Positions 211 to 55,470 of a DNA stretch of 64,000 nucleotides are shown piece after piece. The stretch covers positions 7,765,501-7,829,500 of the forward strand of contig NC_092572.1 of NCBI RefSeq assembly GCF_037975245.1, in the 5' to 3' direction. The notes under the pieces were generated by a model, which worked only from the letters and a program-made list of their open reading frames with translations, had not been told where the DNA came from and made no database searches. Source of the stretch: Apostichopus japonicus. Its lineage: Eukaryota > Echinodermata > Holothuroidea > Aspidochirotida > Stichopodidae. The position numbers were made by a program, and so were the translations under genes. Position 1 is the first letter of the stretch. Each line of letters starts with the position of its first letter.

Positions 211-303
211 CTCCAACATTCATGAATGACATTAGTAAGACCGCAACGGGAAGAATTTTCTGTTGCATCAAATCCATCATGTTCTTGAAATATATGAAGA
301 TCA
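211..303 (-). CDS. Signal-peptide exon of Ig-NLR copy 0 (rest of gene lies left of window)
   Basis: On the minus strand an acceptor (tacacag/tgatc) opens an exon whose ATG is at 278-280. It encodes MMDLMQQKILPVAVLLMSFM then Asn-Val-Gly and ends in phase 1 at the donor ggag/gtaagac (exon end 211). The hydrophobic run is a typical secretory signal. The same exon occurs at 55401-55470 with an identical peptide and at 24494-24560 with a related one; there it is followed by Ig, TM and NACHT exons. The remaining exons should lie beyond position 1, so this gene is cut by the window edge. Confidence 0.75.
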
Positions 304-1150: not shown

Positions 1151-1153
1151 ATT

Positions 1154-7460: not shown

Positions 7461-7462
7461 CT

Positions 7463-7648: not shown

Positions 7649-7767
7649 ATGGAATGTTAACTACAAACATAATAATATAGTTAATCTCCTAAAGCAAACT
7701 TCATTTACTCTCCAAATTAGCGCTTTTTCCAATAACCATGGTCTTCCATCCAAATGATACGAACATT

Positions 7768-8078: not shown

Positions 8079-8170
8079 GCAAACCTACCTACGTTTTTGT
8101 GAAACATGATTCGAAACAACCAGTCTAAACTAGAAAACATGGAGATATACTATTTAAATTTAAGATCATG

Positions 8171-11082: not shown

Positions 11083-11152
11083 GAAGAGATCGATGGCATC
11101 GAAATGAAAAGACAGATCCCCGTATAATAGCAAATAGGTTGTATGTTATGTA
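11083..11152 (+). repeat. Tandem relic of the Kin N-lobe exon 3' half
   Basis: A degraded second copy of the 3' half of the exon at 10834-10980 and its donor region lies in the following intron. The same relic exists in Kin2 at 41478-41552, so the partial exon duplication predates the Kin1/Kin2 split. Confidence 0.65.
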
Positions 11153-12549
11153 AATGTTTGTTGCATAGCTTCTTGGTTAATACAGTACACTCTAACTCTA
11201 GCAACTATGAAAAGAAACCGTTTGTTTGCAGGGCTCCTCCAGTGTATCAGAAACAGCAGCGGGTGCTATATCAGTCATGGAATCTAGATGAGTCGTCCAA
11301 CTTACTGCCCACTTATCTTAAACCTTGTACACTTTTCAAGCAAGACGATCAGTTTTAATGGTTTAGCAGGCTAACGACAACACATTTAAAGGTTAAAAAC
11401 AACACATTATTGGTGAACACAATAACTGAAAGGTGGAAGTGTGGGGGGGGGGGAGATTTTCCCAGGCTGGTCTGTATTTTAATGTAAAGACCAGCGGTGA
11501 ATGAAGGGTTTTATATTTTACTGAACTGAAATGGAATTCAGAGATATATATTTTGTTATTGCAGATAACTCAGCAAACGAAGACTGGCTTCATATCAGAT
11601 TGCTGGCTGAACATCTCAGACATATTCCGAAGCACAGAAATGTAGTAGAAATTGTGGCGGCTGACACAGTAAAACGTAGGCAATAAATTGCTTAAATTGT
11701 TTACATAAAATATGCACCTGTCATTGAGATTTGCCTTATCAACAATATCGTTTATTTCTTTATCTGATTCATGTTTGGAAAAATAAATGAACTTCTCGAT
11801 ATAATATATTCTTGTTCCACTTTCTATGATCCAAACACTGTAGTTCCTTACTACATTTACACGGAATACATCACAAATGGTACTTTAAGAGATGTCCTTT
11901 GTAAAGCGAAATACGACGATGTCTATTCCAAGACTATAAACATGCAGGGACTAAGTAGATCCGCTCAATCAACCGATGCCCTTCGGATTGGATCGTTTTA
12001 TTGGAACCCCTGAAGGCCTTATTCTTTCTTGAATCAATAGACGTGAGTATCAGTGTCATTTGTTATCAATCAACTTACTAAAGTAAGATGCCTATGCGAA
12101 TGGTTCTGACGTCGCCTCGAACTTCTCTCTGTTTTGTAACATATCTAACCCCAAGATTTCAGGATGAGCTATCAATGATAAAATAAGTCTTTATGAAAAG
12201 TCCTAAGCACTTAAGAACACTTTAATAAAAAATTATTTTACAGTGTGATCATCCTGCTATTTGTTCGAGAAAGGTTCTTTTAACACCTAACATGGTGTGC
12301 AAACTGTACGACTTCAACTTGCGATCAGCTACCAAGACAATGCTCTCAAATATCAAGTTTGAGGTGAGGAAAAAACTGTTTGGTTCTTCTTTTTCTTTTT
12401 TTTTTAACTTGTGCAAAATGCAACGATTATCTGAAAGTTCTTTCAAATGAATAAAACAGTACCACAATATTTAACAAGAGGACAATCCATGGAATTACAG
12501 ATCTCATCACCTCCGCACAATTTAGGGCAATTTGAACTTTTACCTCCGT

Positions 12550-12562
12550 TGACCTTTGACCT
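12550..12562 (+). promoter_or_regulatory. DR1-like nuclear-receptor half-site pair
   Basis: TGACCTTTGACCT is a perfect direct repeat of TGACCT spaced by one base, the DR1 form bound by HNF4/RXR-type receptors. It lies in a Kin1 intron. The Kin2 homologue near 42799-42815 has altered spacing. It may simply belong to a dispersed repeat. Confidence 0.2.
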
Positions 12563-14089
12563 CGATTCTTTGCACCCACATAAGTACTATTATAAAATTT
12601 ATTCTCTACATTACTTGCGGTATGATAAGCATGTGATGAAAAAAAAACGTTTTCACATCTGGCCGATGACGTTACCAATCATGTATGCATGAGTTTCGAT
12701 GGTCAGGGACATACCTACAAAGTTTGAAATTGATCAGAACTACAGTGTAGGTGGAGTCTGCGACACATTTTTTTTTTAACAATTTAGGCCAACATGACCT
12801 TTTACCTCAATTGACCCTTGACCCTGACCCAAAAAAGTGTCCTAATTTAAAATTTCTTCTCATCATTCCTTACATATCGTGGCTTTAAGTGTTGTTGACA
12901 AGCAGAAAAGTGGTAAACTAAATTTGGGGGGTTTGTTTGACCTTCGACATAAGACGCTTTCAATCTCTCAGACACGAGTTTACACCAATATACATCTAGC
13001 AAACAAATTTGTACTTGATCAGACTTGCGGTCTATGAGGAGTTTAGACACACGTTTTTCCTCACTTACTCACACTTATCCACGTACTCACATTTATGATA
13101 GTTAACAATTTCATATCCCTAGCCATCAATTGTAGGGAGGTACGATGATGAATTTATTTATAAATGAACATGCCATTGAATATTTTCTAAGTTATCATAA
13201 CATGTTCCATACTGTGTGAATTACATGAACGTGCTCAAAATTTGTATGAAACCTTCGTCTTCCATGGTTTGCCCCGGAGACTATCTTCAAGAAACATTAT
13301 GACCCAGAAAGTGATGTTTGGTCCTTTGCCGTTTTCATCTGGGAGATATTTTCTCAAGGTAAACGTTTTCAGTATTAAATTTGAAGTATACACTTCGAAC
13401 GCAATATACATAAAGATAGCTGTATATTATACATATAATGAATGATATGTTAAGTCTAATTCTTTTTTTTTCAAATTTATTTTTAATATTAACATGAAAT
13501 GCAAATTACTGTACAGTGAGAAGCAATTAATCTACTGTAAGAACATTCATTAAAGGAAATAGTGTCTTGTAATTGTTTCTGTTTTACTCAAGGTGCTTCT
13601 CCGTTTGATGGATTAGATATTATGAAGTTTGCTGCTCAGCCTGATGCTTTACCAGTTCTTTCAAAGCTTGTTTTATGTTCAGACGCTCTGTGAGTTATGT
13701 TCTATTTAGTTGTAGGTTTGTTACTATTGGACTGTTGAATTATATTATTTATTACTGCATATGAAAAATATACTTCACATGCTAAATATCTTGTTTGGAA
13801 TTTATCATACTCTAAATATTATTTACAATTATTTATTCTTAAGAGCAAATTTTTGGATTAAAATCACGCTGGAAATACATTACGATGCATCAGCTTAATT
13901 ATTTGAATTCATACTGATATTTGCTATATAAAAGTACAACGCAAGTTTACATTCTCTGTAATATGTTTTTCAATTCAGATACGAAGTTATGACGTCTTGC
14001 TTGAAGGTGGATCCTGCAGATCGAATTAGCCTTACGGCGTTAAAGACAAAGCTATTTCAGCTAATAGAAAATATCGATTGAAAATTATA

Positions 14090-17000: not shown

Positions 17001-17620
17001 AAAATGACCTCTGCATAAACAAGATGTGCCGTGTGCTCTCTGCATTGCATCCACATTCGTAGTAGGGCATTAATGAAACATTCAATTGTGAAGTCTCCAG
17101 GATCGGTTGATTTCAAACAACTGTAGCAACGCTCACGAAGACTTCACAAACTCCGGTAGTTAAGACATTCGTTTTGAGTACATTAAATGACGCATTAAAG
17201 ACTGATTACATTTACATATCTTTTGGAAACAATTCATTTCCCCATGTTCCTTTCTTTGGGTTGAATTTTGGTACACTCATGGTAGATTGCGAAGTCGTCC
17301 CACATTGATATACTAAAACGTAGATAAGAGAGAAGTGGAATAAGTTAATACAATGAACGTAACGATTCTGCAAGAAAAAAGAACGTAAAGAAGGCCTGTT
17401 ATTAGTAGGTTATGAACAGGTCCACACATGAATACACTTAATCGTAAACCGAAAAATACTAAATGTAATGGAGAGTTAGTTTAGTACATATTTTGAAAGT
17501 TAGTAACAAACATTTCATGAAAATTGAAAAAAAGAACATTAAAATGAACCAACTTCCAACTAAATGTACACACAATTAAGTTTCTTTATCTGGTTCTTGT
17601 ATATTGTCCAAAAAATCGTA
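14090..17620. other. Convergent intergenic region between Kin1 and NLR1
   Basis: The plus-strand poly(A) signal AATAAA at 14695-14700 is a reasonable 3' end for Kin1, 614 bp after its stop. The segment 14403-15530 is present once here but twice in tandem in the Kin2-NLR2 interval. GC-rich repeat-like patches occur at 16020-16135 (runs of G and C around cgtgcctcactttttgaag) and 16610-16700 (ccccgccggggc). No gene was recognised; open frames are short and unspliced. Confidence 0.5.
14695..14700 (+). terminator. Polyadenylation signal candidate for Kin1
   Basis: AATAAA downstream of the Kin1 stop codon. An equivalent motif occurs near 44801 downstream of Kin2. Confidence 0.35.
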
Positions 17621-17629: not shown

Positions 17630-17723
17630 TCACTCACTTTTCATGTCCAATCCCGTCAAAGCTGATTCCACTTTCTGTTTGTCTTCTTCTTTTAATTCCT
17701 TCGGTACCGAACATTTTACGAAC
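17630..17723 (-). CDS. NLR1 exon: C-terminal tail
   Basis: 94 nt from acceptor atgaag; charged tail (VPKELKEEDKQKVESAL) ending TGA at 17630-17632. The last codons overlap a possible donor (gtgagt), so a further exon cannot be excluded. Confidence 0.55.
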
Positions 17724-17755
17724 CTTCATAAGAGAATATAAAGAAATAAATATAT

Positions 17756-17786
<31 letters not shown>

Positions 17787-20700
17787 ACGAAACAAAAGTA
17801 ATAATTCATCACGATAACAAAAGATAACACTAATCACATTTCACAGATGATTATAACGAGGTATTATTAAACATTCTTACTGTATGATTTCTGGATATTT
17901 TCGAGTTGTAAGGCTGGTGATAATTGATACGAATTGGTTTTCGTTGATGTTCATTTCCAGAAATATCAGGATTTTTAATGAGGGCAGTGTTACGTCTTTT
18001 ATGAAGTCAATAGCACAATCTTCTCTAAGTGTCATTCGTCTCAGTCTTACCTGTTGGAAGACAAGTAATTAAAAAGACGTTAACATTAAGGAACGTCATA
18101 TATGTGCACGTTGAATAACTCAAAGAACAACACAAATTCAACAATAACCATTTATCGAGGCATATCACATTAATGCGTATTTTTACAAGAAACATAAATG
18201 TAGTAAAACTAAAACAAATGACCAATCAAATTACGATACGGTTACGATATAAAGAACATCCATTAGAGTAATATGTTAAATGAATAAAATAATTACGATG
18301 GACAATCAGCCGTTTCTTAAAACAAGCTTAGGAATCATTTTTTGACAAGTTGAACATAAATTCAAAAATTAAATGAACCACATTTTGTTTTAAAATAAAT
18401 TTACAGCGTTACCACTACTTACATCGGAAGCATTGCAAGCATCGCAGAATTCTGTTAAGGCAACTCTGTGGTGTTTCCTGTCAAGATGCTGTATGTTAAT
18501 GTTCATATAGCCACCCAGTGTACCCCTTTTGTCGTACATGCTGTTTATAATTGCCTGCCTCTTCTCGAGATTACTCATTTCATAAATACAGTCGATCAAA
18601 TTGTTCCACATTTTCTGATCCTCCAAGAGAGATTTTACTGCTTTATCCAATCTAGAATGATTCATGCCGAACATAAACTGTAATAACCTAACCGTTGCTT
18701 CGTCATTACTCTTTTTTATAAATTCATCTATCCACGCCCACTCTTTATCCTTTTCTGGCACATACTGAGCAGCTAGAAATTCCTGAAAGAATTCATGATA
18801 AAACATGATTCCAGCAAAGGACGAAAAAGCCAATTCTTCTAATTGACTTCCTCCGCTTCCTACCTTCTTTGAATACTTGAGCAAACCTACGTCTAAGGCA
18901 AGTTGGGTATCTTTATCACCAAGTTTATCATTCCAATACTCGCGTTTACCCAATGAAAGGCTCATTTTGTTTTCAAATGCTATTTTACCAAGTCTAGCTT
19001 CCAGACTCTTAATATCTTCTTGAATGGACTGGTTATTAACTTTCTGCACGTATCGGGATTCCAAACAGGTAATCACTAACCTTATTATTGTTGTCAGTTT
19101 GTTAACATTCACTTCTTTATATTTCCCTGTTGGATCTAACATTCTGCATGTAATTATATGAACAATCATAATCAGCAGGAGGGGTGTTTCAGAAAAATTT
19201 TGAGAAATTTCGTTTAATTCCATACAATCAGTAACCTTGTTTGAAAGTATTTCAAAAGTATCATAGGCTTCCGGGTTCTGTCCGTCGTTTCGTGGAACAA
19301 TGTTATCTTTCTGCTCTGATTCTCCTTGCATTATCTCGTCATGAGCAGCGGGAATTAACATTTTTGTTGCATCATCCGTCACCTTGTCAGGTTTAATGTT
19401 ACTTTCATTTGCTTCATTTATGCCATCTTCTGTAAAAATGTCCTCGTCTTTTCTTTCTTCGTTTTGAAGTTTTTCCACATCAACAGTTTGGGTTTGCTCC
19501 GTTATGTCTTGTTTTCTCTCTCCCGAGGTTTGTTTATTTTCTTCGTTAACCTCATTTATGTTTTTACCATTCTTTCCCCTATTCATCGGATTTTCATACT
19601 TTACATTTTCGGCATTTTTATATCCTTCATCTGTCACCGGCTGGCTGACGGTATTTGTCGTCATCTTTGATTCGTGGATCAAGGTTAGTTGGGGTATTAC
19701 TTGTGATTTAAAGTAATATTTGCAGGTTTTATGAATATACTCATTGACTTGAGAATTACTGAAACCATTCAATTTTACCTTAGAATATGGAAGGGCAAAT
19801 GAAGCCTTCATATCATCAACTTCACGAGACGTTACCCAAACCTTGATCTTTTTAAACTTAACAGTGTTTATTTTATCATGGAGTAAATTTTCGACCGTCA
19901 GATTAGCATCATTTTCACCCTCCTCTTGAAGGAGATTGACACGTTCTTCTTTATCGTTAGTAGGATTCTCAGGAGATGTACTGGTACTAATCGTAGACAT
20001 CGATAGCTCATCAAGCCCATCCAAGAGTACTTGAAACTCAAAATTCAGAAATATTTCAACAATATCTTCCACCATCAAATCGTTTCCAACAGGCATCATT
20101 TTTTGGACAATTTCGGAAAGTATCATCGAGGGATCAACCTCTTTAAGGTGAATATATATTAGTATAGGTTCACTGGTTTGATTTTTTCTGCCAATTTTCG
20201 GAAGTTTCATTTTTGATGCCCAATCGCTAACCAAGTGTTGAGTGTAGGTTGTCTTCCCGTAACCTAAATCTGCTATGATGATCACCCGATTATTATCGTA
20301 GTTAAACTCCGGTGTAGACAGAATGTCGCTGTCGTGATGACTGACGTCACCGTTCTCGTTAGTGACGGTGCACTGGCATGTAGTGTAAAGGGCATGTATT
20401 GGTATTGGTTCACTCCATGGTAGTGGTTTGATGAAGCAAAATTTCTCGTAGTATTTCATTAGCCCTTCTACTAATGTATTTTTCCTCTCTAAAGAAAATA
20501 ATAAGCATATCAATGACTACAAAGATTGTACAACGTTGTGATTTTATTAAAAGGAATGGTTTCAATGGGCAAGAAATTTATATTTTGCATTAAAATTTGA
20601 GTATGACAGGCAGGGATGACATCAGCAATAAACATAAAACTGTTATGTTATGACCACTATATGTATGATACCTGCATTGATGATGCGCTATCTTTTGTTA

Positions 20701-23700
20701 AAAATAGAAAACCTCTTTCATTCATTATCATCGTGTAGCTATGAAATCTCCTTGTTGCAATAATTCAGCAGCATACTTGTTTTCTCCTATTCTAGTTTTA
20801 AAGATCGACTCGTATGTTGTTGTTTTTAGCTTTTTCACATATGTTACTGAATGTGTAAGCTATAAAGTTGTACCTCATAATGGAGACTTGTTTTTTATAA
20901 TACCCGTAATTTCTTAGGGCAGTCGCGTCAAGTCTTCTTGCATTGGAATAATAATGTTGAAGATGAACAATTATCTCATACCTTCAAGGGATTTTTTCTT
21001 CGGCTTCGGTTTTGGTTTTGGTTTCGTATTTGTGGTCTGTGTTTCCTGCTGTAAGAACAGATATGGAATTTATTCAAACAGATGGATAACAGGAACACAT
21101 TGTGATTAAAGACTATAAAGTAAAAGAGATATAATATCCTTCTTACCACGTATGGAACCCGAGTTGCGATCTGTGTATACGTACCTAAATAAACAAAAAT
21201 TAGAATATGATCGGTTCAATTATTGTGGCTTTGATATTTTAATGTTCGTTGTTAATATGCAAAAGAATTTAATGCAGCTTTGTAAATTGTATTATTCTTT
21301 ATATGATTATATAAGGGGATATTCAACTGTCTATACCGGCGGCTATCGCAGGAGAAGCAATGAACGGCGGTACAACACAAGCGATCTCCCAGGCGGTAGG
21401 TTGCGTGCATCCAACGATAGCGTTATATCTCGGTTCATTCATACATCAGACTCATTAAACATCAATTTTCATCTGAAAATTTTACACTTGTCTTTTGCCA
21501 ATATTTAAATGAAATATAGCCAACAATGTGTGCAAACGCTGTAAAGATGTTCTCTACTTTTATAATAGTTAACAGTCTCAAAACAAATTAGATGCAGAAG
21601 TAAAATAACATGAACAACAGAAATAGGCTATAGTGTATGTAGTACGGTGAACAACACTACAAAGTCAGCCTGGATATGTCGCAAGGTATACTATATATGC
21701 AGTTGTCATAACAACATGATATAATTTTGTATCAGGACAGGAGTAGAAGTGCACTAACAAGGTCACTATATATACACTCACTACACTCAATTGTATGAAC
21801 TGGCAGTGGCGGCAAAAGAAATAGCAAGTTTGGGGTTGGCTAGGAACAGTTGGGGGAGGGGGAGGCATTTGAAATAAAAAAAAAGATACCTGAATAAAGG
21901 GCAAATCAGGAGAAAATTTAATGGGCAAGAGCACACGTCCTACCCACCCGATCCACCATCCCACGCCTCATCCGTTACGATAATTTAAATTGATAAATAT
22001 TTGCGACTTATTTACAATGACTAGCTCAGCAAAGTTTCGAGTGAAAAACAAGACAAAACTGTAACTTGCTCTATGATTGCAACTGTACACAGTTACTGTC
22101 TGCAAGTACATGACCATCAGAAGCTGCAGCACTATTATTTAGTTCTTGTTCGCCCTTGTGGAGATTATGGAGAGCACAAAAATATGTATGAAAGTATGCT
22201 TGAAATATTCTAGCTTTCTTGAGGTCAATATTATCTGTTGTGACAACGACTCAAATCATTATTTTCTCCTATGCAGATAGTGTGCTGCATAAAAGTTTGC
22301 AGTTGCCAGAATACTTTTTGCTACATATTTGGGAGTTGAGACGATCATGGTTTTCTCTGTTGTTGGTATATTCGGATTATTGAACGAAATTAGATCATTT
22401 CAAAACACCATACTTATCCTTACCTCTTCTTCGATACAAAAAGCAAGCAAATAGGACTAATACCACGAGGACGATAACAATTCCAATAACGACAAAGGGC
22501 CAGGCGACTGGACCTTTAGGGCTACTCGTGGGTTGCATTGGAGGAGAGTCTTTGCAGGCTCCTGAAACGATATAATCAAACAACGAAGATTGTACATGTC
22601 AGGTCACGTCAGGAATTTCAATGAAGATATATCTCAATGTTTCGTGTTATCGGCCACAACTGCGATGTTATCATATACACGCTTTGAAGCTGAAGAATGA
22701 CCTCCTTCCCATACTGCTTTCTACGCTGTCGCAATTTCATTTATCATTGGCAATTCCCCTTTATACCTGATAGAAGAAAAGTCACAAATCCTGGTTCTTA
22801 CACTATTGATATAGGTTTGTTTCTCCAAAGACCTATAATTTCACTATTGCTAAGGGTATACGTTTTGCCCTAATTGTGGGTAAAACAAGGACGTGTGTTA
22901 CATTTGCTTAATTCCAAGGGGTTAACCAAATGTGTCCAAATTTACGCTTCCAAATACAAATAAGACATAACTATGTATATCACTTCGTTATGAATATTCT
23001 ACACTGTCCGTCTGGTATGTTCAAAATGTGTACGTTATTCAATTCAACTGTAAAAAACTGAGTCTTTACGAATATTACTTCTGTAAAATCAAGGAACACA
23101 TTATAAACAGTCACGGTACCTGTCTTTATCCTAACAGTGCTGGAGTAAGTATCAAGGAGAGAGAGTAATGGAAAGTCTGAAAAGGAAGCAATGCATCTGA
23201 AAGTAGCATCTGCTCCACAATCAGGTGTTGTGTATTCAATGGTTTTCTCAGTGTACCATCTGTCACCCATTTCTTTATGAGTTTGCTCTTCTTTGGTGAA
23301 GCTCACTCCAGACTGGTTAGTTACAATCCAGTCTACGTCCATCATTGGTCGAGAGCCATTCACATAGCAAGTCAATGATCCATAAGTGGTAACATTCAGT
23401 TGACAGCCAGTACAGGTAGAACCACAGGCATCAATCAGTGGGCACGGGGGATCGGGTCGACCTGTCAGGATAAATTGTTCACGATATTTACTCAGTGTTG
23501 TTGACTACTGTGAAAATTTGTATTTCAATTGATACAACATTATATTAATATCAATGGATTCAAAATGTTACAACTGCACCGCAAACTAAATAATAAATAA
23601 TAAATAATATAGAAAAGGGATGTGTTTATTACTGTAAATTAAAAGCGCCGTGTTTGATGTATCTTGTTCAAAGTTTTCAAAGTAAGCTGTCAACGTATAG

Positions 23701-24560
23701 CTGTTTTCATGTTGTAACTGGCTATTAATGATTCTAAGAGATCCATTGACGGTTAACTCAAATTCCCCTTTCTGGTATTCGCTGCCACCTGATATGCCAT
23801 CTACGAGTGATAACAAAGGAACGGTGCTCGTTGTTAATCCTTTGTACCAATACAAGTCGTAGTTGGAGCCTAAAACATGGCATGGAAGCTCAAACGACTT
23901 TCCCATTTCTGCAGAACACTTGGGCTGACACTGAACATTGCTTGCATCTGTTAAGAAAACATAATATTTCATATACTTTATTTACATATTAACGGAATGA
24001 GACTCGGTGTTTTTAAAACAAATAGTTGATATATGCTAATTCAATAGTATCTTATAGAATGCAATCGACAGTGAAGATTGATTAAACAATCGTTAATCTG
24101 TAACTTTTAAAACATGAATTTGTTCCGTTGACCGGTGAATATAGAGCACTTCTTTATTTATGCTTTTGTATATATTACTTTACACATATCATATTTTATT
24201 CAGACTATTTTCCGATTATGTCTTGAATAGCTGTTATCGTTTAAAAAACAAGCAATTGTGCAGTTTTTAGTAATATTGGAAATCACAAAGAGGCGATTGT
24301 TCAGACTGGGGTTTAAGTTTATATTCAGTAGCCTCTTTCCTTCCATCATTCTTCCCAAACAGTTCGGAAACATTGTTTTTTTTTTTCCTACTTTGAAATC
24401 CTCTTGACGCCACTGATCAGAGATCAATTGCCATGCAGTCATTACTTTGATATATATGGTAAGCATTAACAAATTAATTCTTATTTGTCTTACCTCCAAC
24501 ATATATAAATGACATTATTAGAACTAAGATCGCAACTGTCTGGTGTATCAAGTCCATCAT
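17630..24560 (-). CDS. NLR1: signal peptide-Ig-Ig-TM-NACHT-LRR receptor (spliced, 9 exons)
   Basis: Minus-strand coding exons: 24560-24494 signal, 23947-23633 Ig1, 23461-23120 Ig2, 22561-22424 TM, 21184-21147, 21048-20982, 20488-18423 NACHT, 18050-17881 LRR-like, 17723-17630 end (TGA). All junctions are AG/GT and phases join without a stop (1,1,1,1,0,1,0,2), giving 3297 nt or 1098 residues. Predicted topology: secretory signal (1-22), Ig1 (about 23-127), Ig2 (128-241), TM (about 262-283) followed by YRRR, Lys/Pro linker (288-322), NACHT with Walker A GYGKTT near 398-403 and Walker B LLDGLDEL near 477-484, an acidic insert of ~120 residues, winged/helical region with HEFFQEFLAAQYV, one LRR-like segment. 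The ectodomain would be outside the cell and the ATPase in the cytosol. NLRs normally lack signal peptide, Ig and TM. There is no intact Death or CARD. Joining of exons is by eye; transcripts would settle it. Confidence 0.83.
17758..17784. repeat. (TA)n tract in NLR1 last intron
   Basis: Short AT/TA run directly upstream of the terminal NLR1 exon. The same interval is contracted in NLR2. Confidence 0.8.
17881..18050 (-). CDS. NLR1 exon: LRR-like segment
   Basis: 170 nt, phase 0 to 2, bounded by ccaacag and gtaagaat. Leucine spacing (LPSLKILIFLEMNINENQF) suggests one or two degenerate leucine-rich repeats, far fewer than in typical NLRs. Confidence 0.7.
18423..20488 (-). CDS. NLR1 exon: NACHT ATPase and helical region
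   Basis: 2066 nt, phase 1 to 0, open throughout. Walker A (ADLGYGKTTYTQ), Walker B (VLLDGLDEL), a TSRE sensor-1-like segment (VWVTSREVDDMK), a long hydrophilic insert rich in Glu/Asn/Lys, then SETPLLLIMIVHI and FFQEFLAAQYV, both typical of the NACHT C-terminal helical/winged-helix part of NLRs. NLR2 has exactly the same exon length. Confidence 0.93.
20982..21048 (-). CDS. NLR1 exon: Lys/Pro-rich linker
   Basis: 67 nt between ttcttacag and gtatgag; encodes alternating Lys-Pro (TKPKPKPKPKKKSLE) and enters the NACHT exon in phase 1. The NLR2 equivalent is 43 nt, 24 nt shorter, again in frame. Confidence 0.7.
21147..21184 (-). CDS. NLR1 exon: short juxtamembrane linker
   Basis: 38 nt between tttatttag and gtaagaag; reads GTYTQIATRVPYV and changes phase from 1 to 0. 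The NLR2 equivalent is 26 nt, a 12-nt difference that keeps the frame. Confidence 0.65.
22424..22561 (-). CDS. NLR1 exon: stalk and transmembrane helix
   Basis: 138 nt, phase 1 to 1. Pro/Ser-rich stalk, then about 22 hydrophobic residues (WPFVVIGIVIVLVVLVLF...) and a basic stop-transfer YRRR. Confidence 0.85.
23120..23461 (-). CDS. NLR1 exon: Ig-like domain 2
   Basis: 342 nt, phase 1 to 1. Canonical C-W-C pattern: SLTCYVNG, VDWIV, ATFRCIAS. Additional Cys-rich start (PCPLIDACGSTCTGC). Same length in NLR2. Confidence 0.82.
23633..23947 (-). CDS. NLR1 exon: Ig-like domain 1
   Basis: 315 nt, phase 1 to 1. Shows ELPCHV (first Ig Cys), YDLYWYKG (core Trp) and a Y-containing F/G strand (SYTLTAYFEN). 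The second canonical Cys is absent. Extra cysteines sit at the start (VQCQPKC). Confidence 0.8.
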
Positions 24561-32050: not shown

Positions 32051-32051
32051 G

Positions 32052-32275
<224 letters not shown>

Positions 32276-32279
32276 TGCA

Positions 32280-34130
32280 ATTTAGATATCTATTTTAATA
32301 GTTTGTGAATTTTCCTACTCAACTGTTATATTATGTGACAGTTTTTTGCTATGTACATGCCACCAAGCAAGACTTTAGTTAATTATCACATGATATCAAC
32401 TATGGAACCCTTAAACAGACTATTAACCATTAATCTCTTTAATTCAATAAACAATTAAACCGATTGCAAATACTTAATCACTTGTTTGTTTTCTTTGTAA
32501 TAAAGAAATGAAATATATCACAACTCCTTCATTTAACACGATAGATGCTAAATTCTCTAACTTCCCTAAGTAATAAATATGTTACCTATCAACTGAATTG
32601 TTTCCTAAATATATTTCGAAAAAAATCACATATGTTTTTTTTCTAAACTAACAAAGTTTTTCATGCATCTGCTTCTTTGTGCTTTACCTTTTGTTATCCA
32701 TACACATAATTACACTGAGTAGGCTGTAAATACTTACAGCAATGACTTCCTGTCAGCATGTATTCGCTTATCTAGTATACTCTCAGGAATTGCCAAAATA
32801 ACTGTCCTTTTTTGTTTATACGTTATAGAACCTGAGTCTTCTTCGGTGGTAATTTTTTTTGTTTCTCTACATCTTTGTTATTTCAGTATCTTTTTCTTTC
32901 TTTCTGTTATATGCATTTTATGTTAATCATGTACACCAGACACATGTGTAGTTTGCTTCATACATTTGAATATCTATGTCACTTAACGCCAAAGAATATG
33001 ATATAAGGGTACCTTACTTCATGGATAAGTAACATTTCATCAATAATTAATACTTAATTAACATTACTTTCACTGCCCTGTATCCACGAGTATTACTACT
33101 TTCCTGATCATTATTAAAAATGACTTCAATACTGGCTTAATTATATTGTAACTCAGAACATAGTTTAACCGAATTGTTTCTACACATCCCATAACCCTCT
33201 AATTGAGGGGGTTACTAGAAAATATTTACATACACTTGTAAATACTTACAACACATTGAGGGTATATTAACAAGTTCCATCGAATAGCAAAATTGAAATT
33301 TCCTGTTGAGTTTGTAAAAATGTTAATTAGAACATGGCTTCTTTCCTTTCGTTACCAAAATTGCTAATAAAAATTAAACTTTATTTTCCACTATGTTAAC
33401 ATCTTGTCATAAAACAATCATATTCTATTCATTGACAATTTGAAGATAAACCAAGTAACTAATCAATTTATTAACACCCTTGTCTTACTAAAAGGTGACT
33501 GTTTGCATAAAATTAATTTTGATATGTCGCAGAATGTTAGCACATATCTGCAATCAGTCTATGATGTATTTGTTTATTATTTCTTTTTATTTTGAGAAGT
33601 GTTAATTTTAATGTCCGATCAGGCTCATCACTTAAATCACTTAAAGTGGTTGGACTGCTTATACTGACCGACACAAACTATTGGATCAGTTCATCCGATG
33701 AAATGTAAGAGCCTAAAGATAACCATGAGTCAAATCATGACGTCATAGAAATATGATAACAATGTACTACAGATTAATTAATGTGGCCATATGCTACCGC
33801 GACATTCAAATGTAAAGATCACGATGAATATCACTGACATGTTTGGTATGAAAACCCAAACACTTACGGCATATGAATAACAGCTTAAGAACCATGAGTG
33901 CGATTCAAATATTCGTTCCTAAAAACAATCGATAGACTGTCTTTATTTGACAGTTTTGTTTTAATCGAAGTTTGGATTTTCGCATCCGAGTTGACTCTCG
34001 GTGTGGCGTCTATACTAGAGTCTTTCACAATTGAATAAGGAATCAAGGATTATTGGGTATTGCTTGTAAGTCTTATATTATTTACAAATTTCTGAATATA
34101 CTGAATATTTACTTTTGACTATTTACTTTT
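32280..34130. other. Spacer, nothing recognised
   Basis: About 1.85 kb of AT-rich single-copy sequence with no open frame of note, no repeat shared with other parts of the window and no RNA gene visible. Confidence 0.45.
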
Positions 34131-34134
34131 GAAT

Positions 34135-35165
34135 ACGGTAGGGAGAACGAAAATATCCTATCGTCAATTTACGAGACGTTAACCAACCCTTAAGCTTTTA
34201 ATATTGAACCATGTTTATTTTATTATCGAGTAAGTTTTTGACCGTCAGATTAACATCATATTCATTTCCCTTTTGGAGGAGATGGATATGTTCCTCTTTA
34301 TCGTTAGATGGATTTTCGTAAACATCGATAGTTCATAAAACCCATCCAGGAGTACTTGAAACTCATAATTCAGAAACATTTCGGCAATATCATTTACCAT
34401 CAAATCGATTTTAACAGGCATCATTGTCTTACAAGTTCGGAACTTATCTTCGAGTGATAAACCTTCCTAAATTAAGTATATAAATTTACTGATTATATTA
34501 TTTTGCCATCTTTCGGTGGTTTCATCTCTTTAAGCCAAACGCGGACCCAATGTTAAATGTACGATGTCTTCCCGTAACCTTAATTTGCTGTAATGAAGAC
34601 CCGATCTTTTATAGAAATTAGACTCCCGTGGAGACCATGTGAGTGTGGTACTGGCTCATCCTATGGAGCAACATTTCTCACAGTACGTTATCTATCTACT
34701 AAAAAAGAATGTTATTTTCTGAAGAAAAGTGTTAAAAATGTTAGTAACTTCTTGGTTTATACACATTATGGTGTATTAAAAGGACTGTTTCAATGGGTAT
34801 GGACTTTATATTTTGCATCTACATTTGACGATGACAGGTGGAGATGTCATCAGTACTGAACATAAAACTGTTTCGTCATGAACACTACAAGTACTATACA
34901 TACTTTTTTGAAGCAGTTGGGTAAAGTCTCTTGCTTCAGAATAGTAATGTGGAAGGAAAACATTTATACCGTACCTTCGAGAGATTTTACTTCGTGCTTT
35001 GGTTTTGGCCTTTTATTTGTGGTCTACATTTCCTGATATATCAGAACAAATATGTAATTTATTCAAATAAATGCATAAACAGGAACGCATTGTGTACAAA
35101 GACTACGCAGTAATATAGATATAATGTCCCTCTAACCATGTATGGGTTCGCAACGATGTGTGTGC
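34135..35165 (-). pseudogene. NLR relic: decayed NACHT exon start plus linker exons
   Basis: 34135-34725 matches the first third of the NLR1/NLR2 NACHT exon on the minus strand, with many frameshifts. The Walker A codons GYGKTS are still readable but stops flank them on both sides. 34725-34960 matches the following intron. The Lys/Pro linker exon (34975-35030) now contains TAG, and the juxtamembrane exon (35137-35165) remains as a trace. The rest of the NACHT exon is gone. This is a third NLR position in the spacer between the two complete units. Confidence 0.8.
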
Positions 35166-47100: not shown

Positions 47101-48650
47101 GGGAGGTAGAGGGACACGTGCCTCACTTTTTGAAGGGTCGGGGCATATCAAATGTCCCCCTCTCCCAAGTATAGTCACTGACTCGTGTAGGCGCTAGGAT
47201 TATGAGGCTCATAATGACTTGTGTATCTCATAAACTGATCTGAAATATTGTGCTATGAGATGACTAGTAATTAATGTCTCATTTGCGCACCCCCCCCCCA
47301 CCCCCTCGCAACAGGAGTGATGGACTTTATACCCAATAATGCTCTTCACAAGTACGTGTTACACCATGTTTTCATATTGGAGACTTATGTATAACAAGGT
47401 TTGTTTATTCTTGTGTGCAACCTTAAGAATGTTTCCGACTTTGGTTTAGGTTTCGAGTTTATTACTAATGATGAAAGCCCTTAGTAAAACCCGCATGTTA
47501 TATAGATAATTCTTACTTAATTTAAGTCTAATTTCTTTGTAATATGTGATTATTGTTGAAATATATTATGACTGACATATCAATTTAGGGACCAAACAGA
47601 TGCAAACTTACAGATTTCTGGATGTGAGTCCGCCCCTGGGCCCCCGCCGGGGCTTATCCCCTGTACCACATCAGGTGTCCTAAGTCGGGCCCTGGACCTC
47701 ACTCGATAAAGGCTTTGCACAAAGGCGCTCGCAGACGCCTGCAATGTTATCCATGTTCAGTCATTTATGCACACCTCCTACACTCCTCAATTAGGATTGG
47801 CGCCCCTGCTTATATTAATGAAACCCTTGATGATTTTAATAGCTTACAAGCCATCAGTTAGAATAAGCATAACAAAATCAATGCCGATGGACTTCCTTTT
47901 AACATTTCATATCAGAAGGTTCTCGAAATAATACGACGGATCCACCAACAACATATAAAGTTCATTCAAGTTTGTTTTGTTTTTTGAGTTTTTCTTGTTC
48001 ACATAGTAATCCGAGTCGGTTGACCTAATATGACCTTTGCATAAACATTATGCCTTGTGCTCTCTGCATTGAATCCACATTCGTAAAAGGTAATTCATGA
48101 AACATTCGCTTGTGAGGTCTCCAGGATCGGTTGATTTCAAACAACTGTAGCCACGATTACGAAGACAATACAAACTCCTTTATTTTGGAATTTCGGTTTG
48201 AGTACATTAAATGACACATAAAAGTATGATAACATTTACAAGCCTTTTGGAAAGAATTCCTTTTCCCATTTTCCTTTCTTTGGGTTGAATTTTGGTACGC
48301 TCACGGTAGCAGGCGATGTCTCCTCACAGTTATATACTAAAAACGTAGGTAACAGAGAAGCGGCAAAAGTTAATAACCTGAATGTAACGATTCTTTGCTA
48401 TAAAATATATACTACAAGAAAAAATAACTTAGAGAAGGTCTGTTATTAGTAGCGAATGAACAGGTTCATACATGAAAGCATTTCATCGTGAACCGAAAAC
48501 AAAGTAAATTTAATGGAGAGTTGTGTTAGTACATATTTTGAAAGCTAGTGAGAAACATTTCATAAAAATTGAAAAAAAAGAACCAACTTCCAATGTACAC
48601 ACAATATTGTTTCTTTATCTGGTTATTGTATGTTGTCCAAATATCGTGAT
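44190..48650. other. Convergent intergenic region between Kin2 and NLR2
   Basis: Counterpart of 14090-17620, longer because of the tandem duplication at 44513-46690. GC-rich repeat-like patches recur at 47085-47190 and 47625-47715. A poly(A)-like AATAAA occurs near 44801. No gene recognised. Confidence 0.5.
44513..46690. repeat. Tandem duplication of ~1.1 kb (44513-45640 and 45648-46690)
   Basis: Both halves contain the same ordered blocks (cagaa.atatgctaaa, ctccgag.taccggaagttattcc, ttcattattcacta). The Kin1-NLR1 interval has a single copy at 14403-15530, so the duplication is specific to this unit. Confidence 0.8.
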
Positions 48651-48657
48651 CTGCACA

Positions 48658-48742
48658 TTACTCACTTTTCATGTCCAATCCCTTCAAAGCTGATTCCACT
48701 GTCTGTTTGGATTTTCCTTTTAAGAAAGTATATATAAAGAAA
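48658..48742 (-). CDS. NLR2 exon: rebuilt C-terminal tail
   Basis: The acceptor used in NLR1 is deleted here. An upstream gactttag acceptor gives the right phase and a tail ending KQTVESALKGLDMKSE, TAA at 48658-48660. The first eight codons derive from what is intron in NLR1. Confidence 0.5.
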
Positions 48743-51700
48743 CTAAAGTCATAATTCATCACGACAAAAAAGATAACACTAATCACATTTCACAGATGAT
48801 TTTAACGGGATATTATCAAATATTCTTACTGTAGGATTCCTGGATATTTTCGAGTTGTAAGGCTGGTGATGATTGATACGAATTGGTCTTCGTTGACGTT
48901 CATTTCCAGAAAAATCAGGAATTTTAATGAGGGTAGTGTTACGTCTTTAATGAAGTCAATAGCACACTCTCCTCTAAGTGTCATTCGTCTCGGTTTTACC
49001 TGTTGGAAGAAAAGTAATTATAAAGACGTTAACATTAAGGAATGTCATATATATCCATGTTGAATAACCCAAACAATAACACAAATTCAACAATAACCAT
49101 TTATCGAGGCATATCACATTAATGCGTATTTTTACAAGAAACATAAATGTAGTAAAGCTAACACAAATGACCAATCAAATTACGATACGGTTACGATATA
49201 AAGAACTTACATTTAGAGTAATATGTTAAATGAATAAAATAATTACGATGGGCAATCAGCCGTTTCTTAAAACGAGCTTAGGAATAATTTTTTGACAAGT
49301 TGAACATAAGATTCAAAAATTAAATGAACCACATTTTGTTTTAAAATAAATTTACAGCGTTACCACTACTTACATCGGAGGCATTGCAAGCATCGCAGAA
49401 TTCTGTTAAGGCATATCTGTGGTGTTTCTTGTCAAGATGCTGTATGTTAATGTTCATATAGCCACCCAGTGTACCCCCTTTGTCGTACATGCTGTTTATA
49501 ATTGCCTGCCTCTTCTCGAGATTACTCATTTCATAAATACAGTCGATCAAATTGTTCCACATTTTCTGTTCCTTCAAGAGTGATTTTACTGCTTTATCCA
49601 ATCTAGAATGATTCATGCCGAACATAAACTGCAATAATCTGATCGTTGCATCGTCAGTACTGTTTTTTATAAATTCATCTATCCACGCCCACTCTTTATC
49701 ACTTTCTGGCGCATACTGAGCAGCTAGAAATTCCTGAAAGAATTCATGATAAAACATGATTCCAGCATAGGACGAAAAAGCCAGTTCTTCTAATTGACTT
49801 CCTCCGCTTCCTACTTTCTTTGAATACTTGAGCAAACCTACGGCTAAGGCAAGTTGAGTATCTTTTTTACCAAGTTTATCGTTCCAATACCCGCGTTTAC
49901 CCAGTGAAAGGCTCATTTTATTTTCAAATGCTATTTTACCAAGTCTAGCTTCAAGACTCTTAATATCTTCCTGAATGGATTGGTTTTTAACTTTCTGCAC
50001 GTATCGGGATTCCAAACAGGTAATCACTAATCTTATTATTGTTGTCAGTTTGTTAACATTCACTTCTTTATATTTCCCTGTTGGATCTAACATTCTGCAT
50101 GTAATTATATGAACAATCATAATCAGCAGAAGGGGTGTTTCAGAAAAATTCTGAGAAATTTCGTTTAATTCCATACATTCAGTGACCTTCTTTGAAAGTA
50201 TTTCTAAAGTGTCATAAGCTTCCGGGTTCTGCCCGTCGTTTCGTGGAACAGTGTTATCTTTCTGCTCTGATTCTCCTTGCTTTATCTTGTGATGAGCTGC
50301 GGGAATTAACTTTTTTGTTACATCATCCGACACCTCGTCAGCTTTAGTGTTACTTTCATTTGCTTCACTATTGCCATCTTCTGTAAAAATGTCCTCGTCT
50401 TCTCTTTCTTCGTTTTGAAGTTTTTCCACATCAACAAATTGGCATTGCTCCGTTATGTCTTGTTCTTTCTCTCCCGAGATTTGTTTACTTTCTTCGTTAG
50501 AATCATTTATGTTTTCATCAATCTTTTCCCTATTCATCGGATTTTCATACTTTACATTTTCGGCATTTTTACATCCTCCATCTGTCACCGGCCGGCTGAC
50601 GGTATTTGTCGTCATCTTTGATTCGGGGATCAAGGTTAGTTGGGGTATTGCTTGTGATTTTAAGTAATATTTGCAGGTTTTATAAATATACTCATTGACT
50701 TGAGAATTCCTGAAACCATTCAATTTAACCTTTAAATATGGTAGGGCAAATGAAGCTTGCATGTCATCAACTTCACGAGACGTTATCCAAACCTTGATCT
50801 TATTAAACTTAACAGTGTTTATTTTATTATCGAGTAAATTTCCGACCGTCAGATTAGCATCATTTTCACCCTCCTCTTGAAGGAGATCGACACGTTCTTC
50901 TTTATCGTTAGTAGGATTCTCAGGAGATGTATTGGCACTAATCGTTGACATCGATAGCTCATCAAGCCCATCTAAGAGTACTTGAAACTCAAAATTCATA
51001 AATATTTCAACAATATCGTCTAAGGTCAAGTTGATTCCAACAGGCATCATATTTTTGACAAGTTCGGAAAGTATCATGGAGGGATCAACCTCTTTAAGGT
51101 GAATATATATTAGTATAGTTTTCCTGGTTTTATTCTTTTTGTCAGTTTTCGTTGGTTTCATCTTTGATACCCAATCGCTCACCACGTACTGAGTGTAGGT
51201 TGTCTTCCCGTAACCTAAATCTGCTATAATGAAGACCCGATTATTATCGAAATTAAACTCCGGTGTAGACAGAAAGTCGCTATCTTGATGACTGACGACA
51301 CCGTTGCCGTTAGTAACAGTGCACTGACATGTAGTGTAAAGGGCATGTATCGGTATTGGTTCACCCCATGGTAGCGGCTTGATGAAGCAAAATTTCTCGT
51401 AGTATCTCATTAGCCCCTCCATTAAAGTATTTCTCTTCTCTAAAGAAAACAGTAAAAATATCAATGACTGCCAAGATTGTAAAACGTTATGACATGATGG
51501 AAAGGAATGGTTTTAAAGAGCAAGATATTTATATTTTGAATTAAAACGCTATATGTATGATATATGTATTGATGAATGTAATTCATTTCTTACATATAGA
51601 AATTACCTTCATTTATTTTCGTGTATCTATGAAATTTCCTTTTTGCAATAATACAGCAGCAAACTGGTCTTTCTCCTTTTCCAGTTTTAAAGATCGACTA

Positions 51701-54700
51701 GGATGTTTTTGTTTTTAGCTTATTCACACATGTTACTGAATGTGTACACATTACTTAAGTTGTACCTCATAATGGAGACTTGTGTTTTACTATATCCGTA
51801 AGTTTTTACACCAGTCGCGAAAAATCTTCTTGCTTTGGAATAATAATGTTGAAGATGAAAAATTATATCGTACCTTCGAGAGATTTTTTGTTTGGTTTTT
51901 GTTTGGTCTGCATTTCCTGATATAAGAACAGATATGAAATATATTGAAACAAATTGATAAATGGGACCACATTGTGGAAAAGAATATGAAGGTATAAAAC
52001 TATAACGTCCTTCTTACCGTGTTTTGATCCGAAGTTGTCGTATCTAAATCAACAAGAACAAAAATAATAAAATAATGGTCGGCTCAATTTTTTGTGGTTT
52101 TGATATATCAATGTCCGTCATTAATATACTTAATTATTAAATGCACCTTTGTTAAGTGCGTTGTTTCATATATGATTACATAAAGGGTTTATCAACGGTC
52201 TACCATGCTGCCAACACAGGATAATACATGAACGATGGTATCACGCATGTGATGCACGAGTCTGTAGGTCGTGTGAATCCAGCAATAGCGTTGCACCTTC
52301 GTTCATTCATACAACACACTCCATAAACATACATTTTCAATACAAATATTGCCATTTTTGTAAACTTTAAAGGAAAAATAACCAACAATGTGTCCAAACG
52401 GTACAAAGAAGTTCTCTACATTTATGATAGTTAACAGCCTCAAATCAAATTAGATGCAGAGGTAAAATAACAAGAATAACAGAAATAGGCTATAGTGTAT
52501 GTAGTGCGCTGAACAACACCACGTTATTCAATGAAGTCAGCCTGGATCTGACCCAAGGTGTACTATACATGTAGTTGCCATCACAGCATGATATAATGCT
52601 GTATCAGGACAGGAGTACAGTGCACTAACAAGGTCACAATATCTACGTTCTGAATACACTAAACTGTTTGAACTGGTAGTGGCGGCACGAGAAATCCAAA
52701 GAAAGTGTGGCAAGTTTGGGGATGGACAGTTGGGGGGGGGATATGAAATTAAAAAAGGGTACCTGAATAAAGAGCCAATCACGAGAACATTTAGGGGCTG
52801 GGGCACACGTCTTATACCTACCCAATCCCCCATCCCACGCTTCATCCGTTACGATAATTAAAATTATGAATATTTGCGATTTACAATGACTAGCTGAGCA
52901 ATGTGTCAAGAAGAAAAAGGAGAACAATCTTTAACTTTCTTTATCATTACAATTGTTACATTTACTACCTGCGAGTGCATGACCCTAAGAAGCTACAGCT
53001 CTATTAGATAGTTCTTGTTCGCCCTTGTACTGTAGCGCAAAGCTACGTATGAAAGTATGCTAGACATATTCTACTATTCATGAGATAAATATCATCTGTT
53101 GTAACACCAACTAACATCGTTCATTTCTTCATTGCATAAATTGTGTTGCATGAAAGTTTGCCAGAATATTACCTGTTACATATTTGGGAGTTGCAGCGAT
53201 AATGGTTCCCTATGTTCGTGGTATGGTCGGATTATTTAACGTTACTAGATCAATTCAAAACACCATACTTATCCTTACCTCGTCTGCTGCACAAACGGCA
53301 AGCAATGAGAATGGCGCATATTACAAAAAAGAAGATTATAATTCCAATAACGACGATGAGCCATGCACTCCCTTTAGGGCTACCCGTGGGTTCCACTGAA
53401 GGAGGCTCTTTGCAAGCTTCTGAAATGACATAATTAAGACAACGAAGATTGTACACGTCAGGTTACACAATCTTGCAAGTATAAGGGTTACGGGAGAGGA
53501 ATTAAATAAAGACATATCTGAGAGCTACGCCTTTCCTGTGTTATTGGCCACAATTGCGTTGTTATCATAAACACGCTTTCAAGACCTACTACTTTGTACG
53601 CTGTCGAAATTACAATAACCCAAGGTTCTATAGTTATAGAATAATTTGCTATTTGCAAAGTAGTTAATTTATAGGTTTGAATATCCAAAGAAAAGACCTA
53701 TAATTTTAGTTTTGCTTACGGTATACGTTTTGCTCTAATTGTGGATATATAGTAATACAAAAACGTGGGTTGTATTTTATTACTGGTACAGAAGTCTTCC
53801 TTATCTGTTCCAGTTTATAGCCACTAAATACCATTAAGACATAACTATGCATAAAGCTATGCATTATGTTCATATCCTTTCGTTATGAATGTTCTACAAT
53901 GTCCGTCTGGTATGTTCCAAATGTGTTCGTAATTCAGTTACACTGTACAAAAATAAATCTTAATGAAGTTTTGTAATATACATATCACTTACGTAAACTC
54001 AACGGACAAATTATAAACTGCCAAAGATAAGCATGGGAAATGGTTCAATAAACAGCAATACATTACTAATACCATCACGAATTTGCCAGTCAGTATATAC
54101 CACCATACCTGTATTAATCCTAACAGTGCTGGAGTAAGTATCAAGAAGAGAAGCAAAAGAAAAGTCTGACAAGGAAGCGATGCATCTGAAAATAGCATCT
54201 GCTCCACAATCCGGTGTTGTGTATTCAATGGTTTTCTCAGTGTACCATCTATCATCCATTTCTTTATGAGTTTGCTCTTCTTTAGTGAAGCTCATTCCAA
54301 ACTGGTTAGTCACCACCCAGTCTACGTCCATGATTGGTAGAGAGCCATTCACATAGCATGTCAATGATCCAGAAGTGGTAACGTTCAGTTGACATCCAGT
54401 AAAGGTCGAACCACATGCATCAATCAGTGGGCACGGAGGATCGGGTCGACCTGTCAGGACAAAATGTTAACGATACTTACTCAGTGTTGTTGACTACTGA
54501 AAAGTTGCTTTTCAATTGATACACCAATATATATATATGACTGGATTCGAAATGTTACAACTGCACCGCTAACTAAGTATTAATTTAGAAAAGGTTATGT
54601 TTATTACTGTAAATCAAGCGCCGTGTTTGAGGTATATTGTTCAAAGTTGTCAAAGTAAGCTGTCAGAGTATAGCTGCCTTCGTGTTTTAACTGGCTTTTA

Positions 54701-55470
54701 TTGATTCTAAGAGATCCATTGATGGTTAACTCAAATTCCCCTTTCTGGTATTCGCTGCCACCTGATATGCCATCTACGAGTGATAACAGAGGAGTGGTGC
54801 TCGCTGTTAATCCTGTGTACCAATATAAGTCGTAGTTGGAGCCTAAAACATGGCATGGAAGCTCTAACGACTTTCCCAATTCTGCAAAACACTCGGGCTG
54901 ACACTGAACACTGCTTGCGTCTGTCAAGAAAACATAATATTTGTATTTACCTGTATTTACATATAAACGGATTGAGCTGATAGTTGATATATAGAAGTAG
55001 TTGAAGTAGTTGATGAAGTAGTTGAAATATGTTGACTAGATAGTATCCTATAGAATGCAAAAGACAGTGAAGATTAATTAAACAAACGTTAATCGTTTAA
55101 AACATGGACTTTTTGCGTTTAGCGGTTAATTTGGAAGACGTTTGTTTTCATATTTTGGCATATATCAATGTGAAAATCACATATATCATTCTGACACCTT
55201 CTAGGAGGGGTTGTTCAGACTGGTGATTAATTTTATATTCAGTAGCCTGTTGCCCTTCATTTTGTTCTACTTAAAGTTCGGAAAAAAAATTGGGCCCCTC
55301 TTTGAAATCCTGTGCACGCCACTGATTATAGATCATTCAGCTGCCGTCCTCACTTTGAGATAAATCGTAATTATTACAAACGTAATTTTTAATGTCTTAC
55401 CTCCAACATTCATGAATGACATTAGTAAGACCGCAACGGGAAGAATTTTCTGTTGCATCAAATCCATCAT
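48658..55470 (-). CDS. NLR2: signal peptide-Ig-Ig-TM-NACHT-LRR gene with one frameshift
   Basis: Minus-strand exons: 55470-55401 signal, 54920-54608 Ig1, 54450-54109 Ig2, 53419-53279 TM, 52043-52018, 51916-51874, 51439-49374 NACHT, 48999-48830 LRR-like, 48742-48658 tail (TAA). Splice sites and phases match NLR1, with in-frame length changes in the TM (+3), juxtamembrane (-12) and Lys/Pro (-24) exons. The exception is the Ig1 exon, 313 nt instead of 315: two bases are missing just before its donor, so normal splicing would shift the frame and stop early in Ig2. Skipping Ig1 (phase 1 on both sides) would restore the frame. The NACHT exon is fully open (Walker A GYGKTT, Walker B LLDGLDEL). The gene is either alternatively spliced, recently inactivated, or carries a sequencing error. 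Confidence 0.78.
48830..48999 (-). CDS. NLR2 exon: LRR-like segment
   Basis: 170 nt, phase 0 to 2, as in NLR1; LPSLKFLIFLEMNVNEDQF. Confidence 0.7.
49374..51439 (-). CDS. NLR2 exon: NACHT ATPase and helical region
   Basis: 2066 nt, the same length as in NLR1 and open. The ATPase core and the C-terminal helical part are very similar to NLR1. The hydrophilic insert (roughly 50160-50610) differs at many more residues. Confidence 0.92.
51874..51916 (-). CDS. NLR2 exon: Lys-rich linker
   Basis: 43 nt, atatcag acceptor, gtacg donor, reads EMQTKQKPNKKSLE and enters NACHT in phase 1. Confidence 0.65.
52018..52043 (-). CDS. NLR2 exon: juxtamembrane micro-exon
   Basis: 26 nt between gatttag and gtaagaa; reads DTTTSDQNT, phase 1 to 0. 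Confidence 0.55.
53279..53419 (-). CDS. NLR2 exon: stalk and transmembrane helix
   Basis: 141 nt, phase 1 to 1. Pro-rich stalk then WLIVVIGIIIFFFVICAILI and a basic CSRRG end. Confidence 0.83.
54109..54450 (-). CDS. NLR2 exon: Ig-like domain 2
   Basis: 342 nt as in NLR1, with SLTCYVNG, VDWVV and IFRCIAS. Confidence 0.8.
54608..54920 (-). CDS. NLR2 exon: Ig-like domain 1 (2 nt short)
   Basis: Homologous to 23633-23947. Ends GCG CTT GAT TTA CA before the donor instead of GCG CTT TTA ATT TAC A, leaving in phase 2. The second Ig Cys is missing here too. Confidence 0.78.

What the first reader, a model, noticed from the sequence alone, without database searches (positions are those of the whole stretch)
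17630..24560. A membrane-anchored NLR: signal peptide-Ig-Ig-TM-NACHT-LRR in one gene
Nine exons join on the minus strand with correct AG/GT sites and continuous phase to give a 1098-residue type I membrane protein with Ig domains outside and a NACHT ATPase inside. Known NLR families are cytosolic and carry Death/CARD/PYD effectors, not a signal peptide and TM. This would couple extracellular recognition directly to NACHT oligomerisation. I know of no standard family with this order.
Basis: partly seen in the sequence, partly recalled or inferred. Interest (0 to 1): 0.95.

Follow-up and report, generated by a model that had tools for sequence, protein, structure and literature searches.

The report
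Sea cucumber membrane Ig–NACHT receptor gene
This sea cucumber gene encodes a predicted cell-surface receptor with antibody-like domains outside and a NACHT immune switch inside; that kind of receptor was already described in this animal, but the gene lies in an array of about a dozen relatives in which one outer domain seems to have been swapped while the rest stays the same.

Summary
The gene is real. No LRR family was found. Tandem copies keep the splice sites and, through in-frame indels, the frame of the small TM-to-NACHT exons, so one fused gene is favoured. Two neighbouring copies carry breaks.

The claim of an unknown architecture fails. Published primers place the genome as Apostichopus japonicus or a very close relative, and AjNLRC4 (Ig-Ig-TM-NACHT, membrane receptor; PMC8699970, 2021) maps to another chromosome of it. 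AjNLR-new (PMC13133943, 2026) is a second published member, and V-set NLRs are reported in Chiridota (PMC8913654).

Not found in print in my searches: the gene sits in a same-strand array of 13 near-full-length NACHT loci. The distal V-set exon falls in three classes (58% mean DNA identity between, 92% within), while C2 and NACHT identities ignore those classes (91 vs 91%, 88 vs 88%). Two loci with 99.7% identical NACHT DNA carry different V classes. This looks like V-exon swapping on a constant chassis. No RNA was examined.

The parts
24494..24560 (-). exon 1: start codon and signal peptide-like hydrophobic segment
   Evidence: ATG and GTAAGAC donor also in copies B and D; KD19 2.03
23633..23947 (-). 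exon 2: V-set Ig domain (phase 1-1)
   Evidence: Pfam V-set 6.8e-8 on the exon, 3.8e-7 in the protein
23120..23461 (-). exon 3: C2/C1-like Ig domain (phase 1-1)
   Evidence: weak Pfam C1-set/C2-set_2, below cut-off; dN/dS 0.26 against copy B
22424..22561 (-). exon 4: stalk, TM helix, RRR after it
   Evidence: KD19 3.56 at aa 265-283; hydrophobic segment kept in copies B, D, F
21147..21184 (-). exon 5: linker
   Evidence: 38 nt; 26/26/35 nt in copies B/D/F, same frame
20982..21048 (-). exon 6: basic KPKPKPKPKKK linker
   Evidence: 64 nt counted from the second acceptor; 43/43/52 nt in B/D/F, same frame
18423..20488 (-). exon 7: NACHT ATPase with an acidic insert of about 150 aa, then helical region
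   Evidence: Pfam NACHT 4.6e-8; 86% aa identity to copy B; insert pI 4.4
17881..18050 (-). exon 8: C-terminal segment, no LRR family matched
17638..17723 (-). exon 9
   Evidence: aligned in D and E, its start missing in B
17213..17312 (-). exon 10: last codons; stop TAA at 17214-17212
   Evidence: copies at B, D and E
48237..55470 (-). paralogue B, same exon order; exon 2 is 2 nt shorter (frameshift at its end) and the start of exon 9 with its acceptor is missing
34124..35062 (-). copy C: degenerate NACHT and linker fragment with stops
211..280 (-). exon 1 of copy D, whose other exons lie left of the window (L013, L014), about 7 kb away

Best explanation
One protein-coding gene for a type I membrane pattern-recognition receptor of the sea cucumber Ig-TM-NACHT class. 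Shown from sequence: exon order, phases, domain matches, one TM, conservation in copies. Inferred: the signal peptide is cleaved; the V-set domain (with C2 as a stalk) binds a microbial or self ligand outside; the basic linker lies on the inner face of the membrane; clustering brings NACHT domains together, nucleotide-dependent oligomerisation (Walker A ADLGYGKT, Walker B LLDGLDE, sensor-1 TSR; motif names recalled) follows, and the complex acts on cytoskeleton and caspase partners as reported for AjNLRC4 (actin-dependent phagocytosis, caspase-1-like recruitment). Across the array the V-set exon is the variable recognition part and C2-TM-NACHT the constant chassis.
For: Exon model with all sites and phases. 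Domain matches. In copies A, B, D and F, exon 5 is 38/26/26/35 nt, exon 6 64/43/43/52 nt and exon 4 138/141/141/141 nt, each keeping its frame and splice sites. Genome-wide, 41 of 118 merged NACHT loci have a same-strand V-set exon within 10 kb upstream, against 6 of 118 downstream and 8.3 on average (maximum 16) in 500 local-jitter controls (both input lists hold only the best-scored candidates). AjNLRC4 primers locate that gene in the same genome, and the paper reports membrane location and microbe binding by the Ig part. Window V-set against AjNLRC4 V-set: BLASTP 2e-7; NACHT against NACHT: 1e-8, 24% identity over 196 columns. dN/dS A against B: exon 3 0.26, exon 7 0.48.
Against: No RNA or protein data for this gene. 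Exons 1, 4, 5 and 6 are no more conserved in DNA identity than introns (0.73, 0.74, 0.54, 0.80), though exon 5 was misaligned there. dN/dS is high in exons 2 (0.74) and 8 (0.66) and 1.1 in the tiny exon 5. Copies B and D carry breaks, so the local subfamily is partly decaying. The first Walker A glycine is alanine. A 20-row NACHT tree does not join this gene with the AjNLRC4 clade, with long branches that make its place unsure, so function need not transfer. No PDB sequence match for exon 7 at E<=1; no structure model could be made.
Confidence: 0.78

Rival explanations
1. Two genes: an Ig-TM receptor (exons 1-4 or 1-6) and a separate cytosolic NACHT protein starting in exon 7 (an in-frame ATG lies about 10 codons into the exon).
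For: Exon 7 is open over its whole length, 688 codons, with an early methionine; no RNA available, and promoters before exon 7 were not scanned.
Against: Small linker exons keep frame and splice sites in four copies; V-set and NACHT stay paired at about 2-6 kb over 41 of 118 loci; the published family members are described as single ORFs (PMC8699970, PMC13133943). An extra short isoform is not excluded.
Confidence: 0.07
2. A decaying, largely non-functional array; copy A is a recent survivor and not expressed.
For: B has a 2-nt deletion in exon 2 and lost the start of exon 9, D an exon 3 acceptor AG->AC and a stop in exon 7, C and E are fragments. Locus 7943 has a TGA in its NACHT and a broken C2 exon.
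Against: Copy A and the fetched part of F (exons 2-7, exon 7 only in part) are intact; exon 7 dN/dS 0.48 and exon 3 0.26 between A and B; 11 of the 13 array NACHT matches lie in open frames of 618-773 aa.
Confidence: 0.1
3. Inverted topology as proposed for AjNLR-new: N-terminal hydrophobic segment is a TM, Ig inside, NACHT outside.
For: PMC13133943 reports cell-surface binding of its recombinant NACHT and a two-TM prediction.
Against: The first hydrophobic segment is at the extreme N terminus and weaker than the TM (2.03 vs 3.56), as expected of a signal peptide; RRR and KPKPKPKPKKK follow the TM (positive-inside rule, recalled); four N-glycosylation sequons lie in the Ig part. The words 'signal peptide' do not occur in that paper's main text.
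Confidence: 0.05

Closest known systems
AjNLRC4 of Apostichopus japonicus (PMC8699970; MN607598 per PMC11932488)
   Same: Ig-like + Ig outside, TM, NACHT inside, no LRR, no CARD; V-set exon related (2e-7); gene found in the same genome
   Different: other chromosome (C16 vs C12); NACHT 24% identical; by my reading of its frames its locus has two V-like and two C2-like domains where the window gene has one of each, while the paper counts one Ig-like and one Ig plus a second TM at 776-795; no comparable acidic NACHT insert seen by eye; different NACHT clade
AjNLR-new of A. japonicus (PMC13133943, PIK48001.1)
   Same: N-terminal hydrophobic segment, Ig-like, Ig, TM, C-terminal NACHT; 1197 aa, pI 5.34, near the 1129 aa and pI 5.30 predicted here
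V-set NLRs of Chiridota heheva (PMC8913654)
   Same: NACHT with an Ig V-set domain in another sea cucumber; [quoted passage not shown]
   Different: no TM or topology statement in the passages seen
Vertebrate NLRs (NLRC4 and others; recalled and as described in PMC8699970)
   Same: NACHT module
   Different: cytosolic, death-fold effector and LRR; neither found here

Membership tests
sea cucumber Ig-TM-NACHT receptors (AjNLRC4 class) | two N-terminal Ig domains | tested here: met
   V-set over cut-off; second Ig sub-threshold in Pfam but alignable with AjNLRC4 C2-like segments at 23-27%
sea cucumber Ig-TM-NACHT receptors (AjNLRC4 class) | TM between Ig and NACHT | tested here: met
   KD19 3.56 at aa 265-283
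sea cucumber Ig-TM-NACHT receptors (AjNLRC4 class) | NACHT C-terminal to the TM, no CARD, no LRR | tested here: met
sea cucumber Ig-TM-NACHT receptors (AjNLRC4 class) | NACHT in one clade with AjNLRC4 (stricter than the published use of the class) | tested here: not met
   20-row tree: AjNLRC4 with L012 (99/100), window copies apart on a long branch whose place is unsure; so same architecture class, apparently a different subfamily
sea cucumber Ig-TM-NACHT receptors (AjNLRC4 class) | surface location, microbe binding, actin interaction | not testable with these tools
   needs bench work
canonical NLR | C-terminal LRR | tested here: not met
   no LRR family at E<=1
canonical NLR | N-terminal death-fold effector | tested here: not met
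   Ig and TM instead

The most novel reading that the evidence does not exclude
The C12:7.55-8.15 Mb array is a germline-diversified receptor set: one distal V-set exon is exchanged among copies by recombination in intron 2 while C2, TM and NACHT are homogenised, giving many ligand specificities on one NACHT signalling chassis. This would be an antigen-receptor-like division into a variable and a constant part, attached to an inflammasome-type ATPase.
Probability: 0.45. Interest if true: 0.78.

Novelty: new member of a known kind. Interest (0 to 1): 0.5.

Why it matters
It supports that the odd architecture is real and belongs to a large sea cucumber receptor class that the papers I found treat as single genes. 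The array gives a natural experiment: closely similar NACHT exons behind three V-set ectodomain classes, which makes it testable whether ectodomain identity sets ligand specificity while NACHT sets output. It also offers a reason to recheck the inverted topology proposed for AjNLR-new.

Tried and rejected
LRR: looked for in the whole protein and in exon 8; none. Two-gene model: lowered by frame-preserving linker exons. Common NACHT origin with AjNLRC4: not supported in a 20-row tree with long branches; rows L006-L008 were counted as lacking Ig although their upstream DNA was not examined, L041 was dropped because no frame passed my filter, and copies D and F were not in it, so the label counts are not used. 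PDB sequence search with exon 7: no hit. My first exon boundaries were off and gave a broken frame; one search stopped on a mistyped motif; corrected. The pairing count used 64 of 125 NACHT rows and 70 of 150 V rows of my choice; one search repeated it with all rows (125 rows merged to 118 loci) and is the one to use. The 13 array loci leave out six shorter, stop-ridden loci of the region (19 after merging) but keep locus 7943 (one TGA) and copy D. Pairing of NACHT 7579 with the V exon at 7599 (19 kb) is doubtful, yet it was used. The gap count is from one MAFFT alignment; the deletion that removes the start of exon 9 in B begins in the intron and was counted there. The 15 loci were chosen by me from the 106 places, not at random. 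A genome-size search for a matching paper found nothing.

Full report
Setting. The window is C12:7,765,501-7,829,500 of a 671.6-Mb, 35-contig genome. Of seven AjNLRC4 oligonucleotides printed in PMC8699970 that I compared with L010-L012 and the window, four match L010 in the expected order: both qPCR primers exactly and both ectodomain primers with one mismatch. The two intracellular-part primers gave no match within four mismatches, and the siRNA target matched only with four mismatches, at L010 and equally in the window. Only the ectodomain forward primer was searched in the whole genome, with one place found. I take the genome to be Apostichopus japonicus or a very close relative, and AjNLRC4 to lie at C16:about 4.497-4.503 Mb.

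The gene. Ten exons on the minus strand give 1129 aa. Pfam finds V-set (3.8e-7) and NACHT (4.6e-8) over the gathering scores and no LRR. The second Ig matches Ig families only below cut-off. One strong TM is followed by RRR and KPKPKPKPKKK. The NACHT carries ADLGYGKTT, LLDGLDE and TSR motifs (names recalled) and an acidic insert of about 150 aa (pI 4.4). Between A and B, codons 300-400 of exon 7 show 28.5 nonsynonymous to 1.5 synonymous changes, which suggests diversifying or relaxed selection in that insert.

One gene or two. Paralogue B (55470-48237), copy D (left of the window) and copy F (C12:7.85 Mb) have the same exon order over the parts seen. Exon 5 measures 38/26/26/35 nt, exon 6 64/43/43/52 nt and exon 4 138/141/141/141 nt in A/B/D/F, always in the same frame and with usable splice sites. 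Between A and B, 10 of 57 gaps placed in introns but 5 of 6 placed in exons are multiples of three; the sixth is the 2-nt deletion in B exon 2, and the loss of the start of B exon 9 was counted with the introns. Against this, DNA identity of exons 1, 4, 5 and 6 is no higher than that of introns. Copy D lost the exon 3 acceptor and has a stop in exon 7; its exon 1 lies about 7 kb from its exon 2, against about 0.5 kb in A and B. C and E are fragments. Copy A is intact, F is intact over exons 2-6 and the fetched part of exon 7.

Family in the genome. The window V-set exon has at least 150 matches, its NACHT at least 125, its C2 exon at least 81; each list holds only scored candidates. After merging, 41 of 118 NACHT loci have a same-strand V-set exon within 10 kb upstream, 6 of 118 downstream; moving V exons by 15-60 kb gives 8.3 on average, 16 at most in 500 trials. 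In a separate sample of my choice, 6 of 15 upstream regions of other NACHT loci held V and/or C2 exons, 9 of 15 none (L019 C2 only). A TM exon was looked at only in A, B, D, F and AjNLRC4.

The array. C12:7.55-8.15 Mb holds 13 near-full-length NACHT loci on one strand, 11 of them in open frames of 618-773 aa; 12 of 13 have a V-set exon 2.3-5.8 kb upstream. The V exons fall in three classes: mean DNA identity 91.7% within and 57.8% between; C2 91.3 and 90.8%; NACHT 88.4 and 88.4% (13 V, 12 C2 since locus 7943 has a broken C2, 13 NACHT). In the V tree each class is one side of a branch (support 100/100, 84/97, 99/98). In the NACHT tree starred branches force at least four changes for classes I and II, only one for class III; the C2 tree is poorly resolved and forces only one for each. 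NACHT of loci 7627 (class I) and 7728 (class II) are 99.7% identical, the strongest single point. In the one class II and one class III locus examined, DNA similarity to gene A resumes four bases before exon 3; upstream of that only a 108-nt stretch of the class II V exon and a simple repeat align. This fits exchange of the V exon, or homogenisation of the rest by gene conversion; assembly error is not excluded.

Prior art. PMC8699970 (abstract; introduction, four results sections, discussion, primer table, supporting-information list): AjNLRC4 with Ig-like, Ig, TM and NACHT, on the membrane, binding microbes by its Ig part, dimerising, acting through actin. It states that, to the authors' knowledge, proteins with both Ig and NACHT had not been reported. 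PMC13133943 (abstract with introduction, one results section, discussion, one methods section, passages): AjNLR-new, proposed with NACHT outside. PMC11932488 (12 of 24 passages found): AjNLRC4 binds a caspase-1-like protein through its Ig part. PMC8913654 (passages): V-set NLRs in Chiridota. I found no account of the array or of V-exon swapping in searches, seen mostly as listings; subscription papers and supplements were not searchable.

Verdict. A real gene, a new member of a published receptor class; the array-level mosaic is the part a specialist would want to follow.

Noticed in passing
window 37837-44126 (+), related copy 8269-13903 (+): Ig-like exons (Ig_3 1.5e-4, below cut-off) followed by tyrosine-kinase-like exons (PK_Tyr_Ser-Thr 1e-5 on 43336-43494, 0.016 on 42461-42703); the catalytic HRD motif is not evident by eye, so perhaps an Ig-TM pseudokinase receptor beside the Ig-NACHT genes.
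   Followed up: partly
window 11-8116 and 55203-64000: Recent block duplication at about 94% DNA identity, with breaks, covering exon 1 of copies D and B.
   Followed up: partly
C12:0.7-2.3 Mb: A second array: 21 of 31 merged NACHT loci have a related V-set exon 1.8-5.1 kb upstream on the same strand, 5 of 31 one downstream.
   Followed up: no
window 18423-20488, codons 300-400 of exon 7: Acidic low-complexity insert in the NACHT with 28.5 nonsynonymous against 1.5 synonymous changes between A and B.
   Followed up: no
L011:6665-7024: Reading frame that resembles a retroelement integrase core, downstream of AjNLRC4 (resemblance recalled).
   Followed up: no
window 31938-32308: Long TA dinucleotide run.
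   Followed up: no
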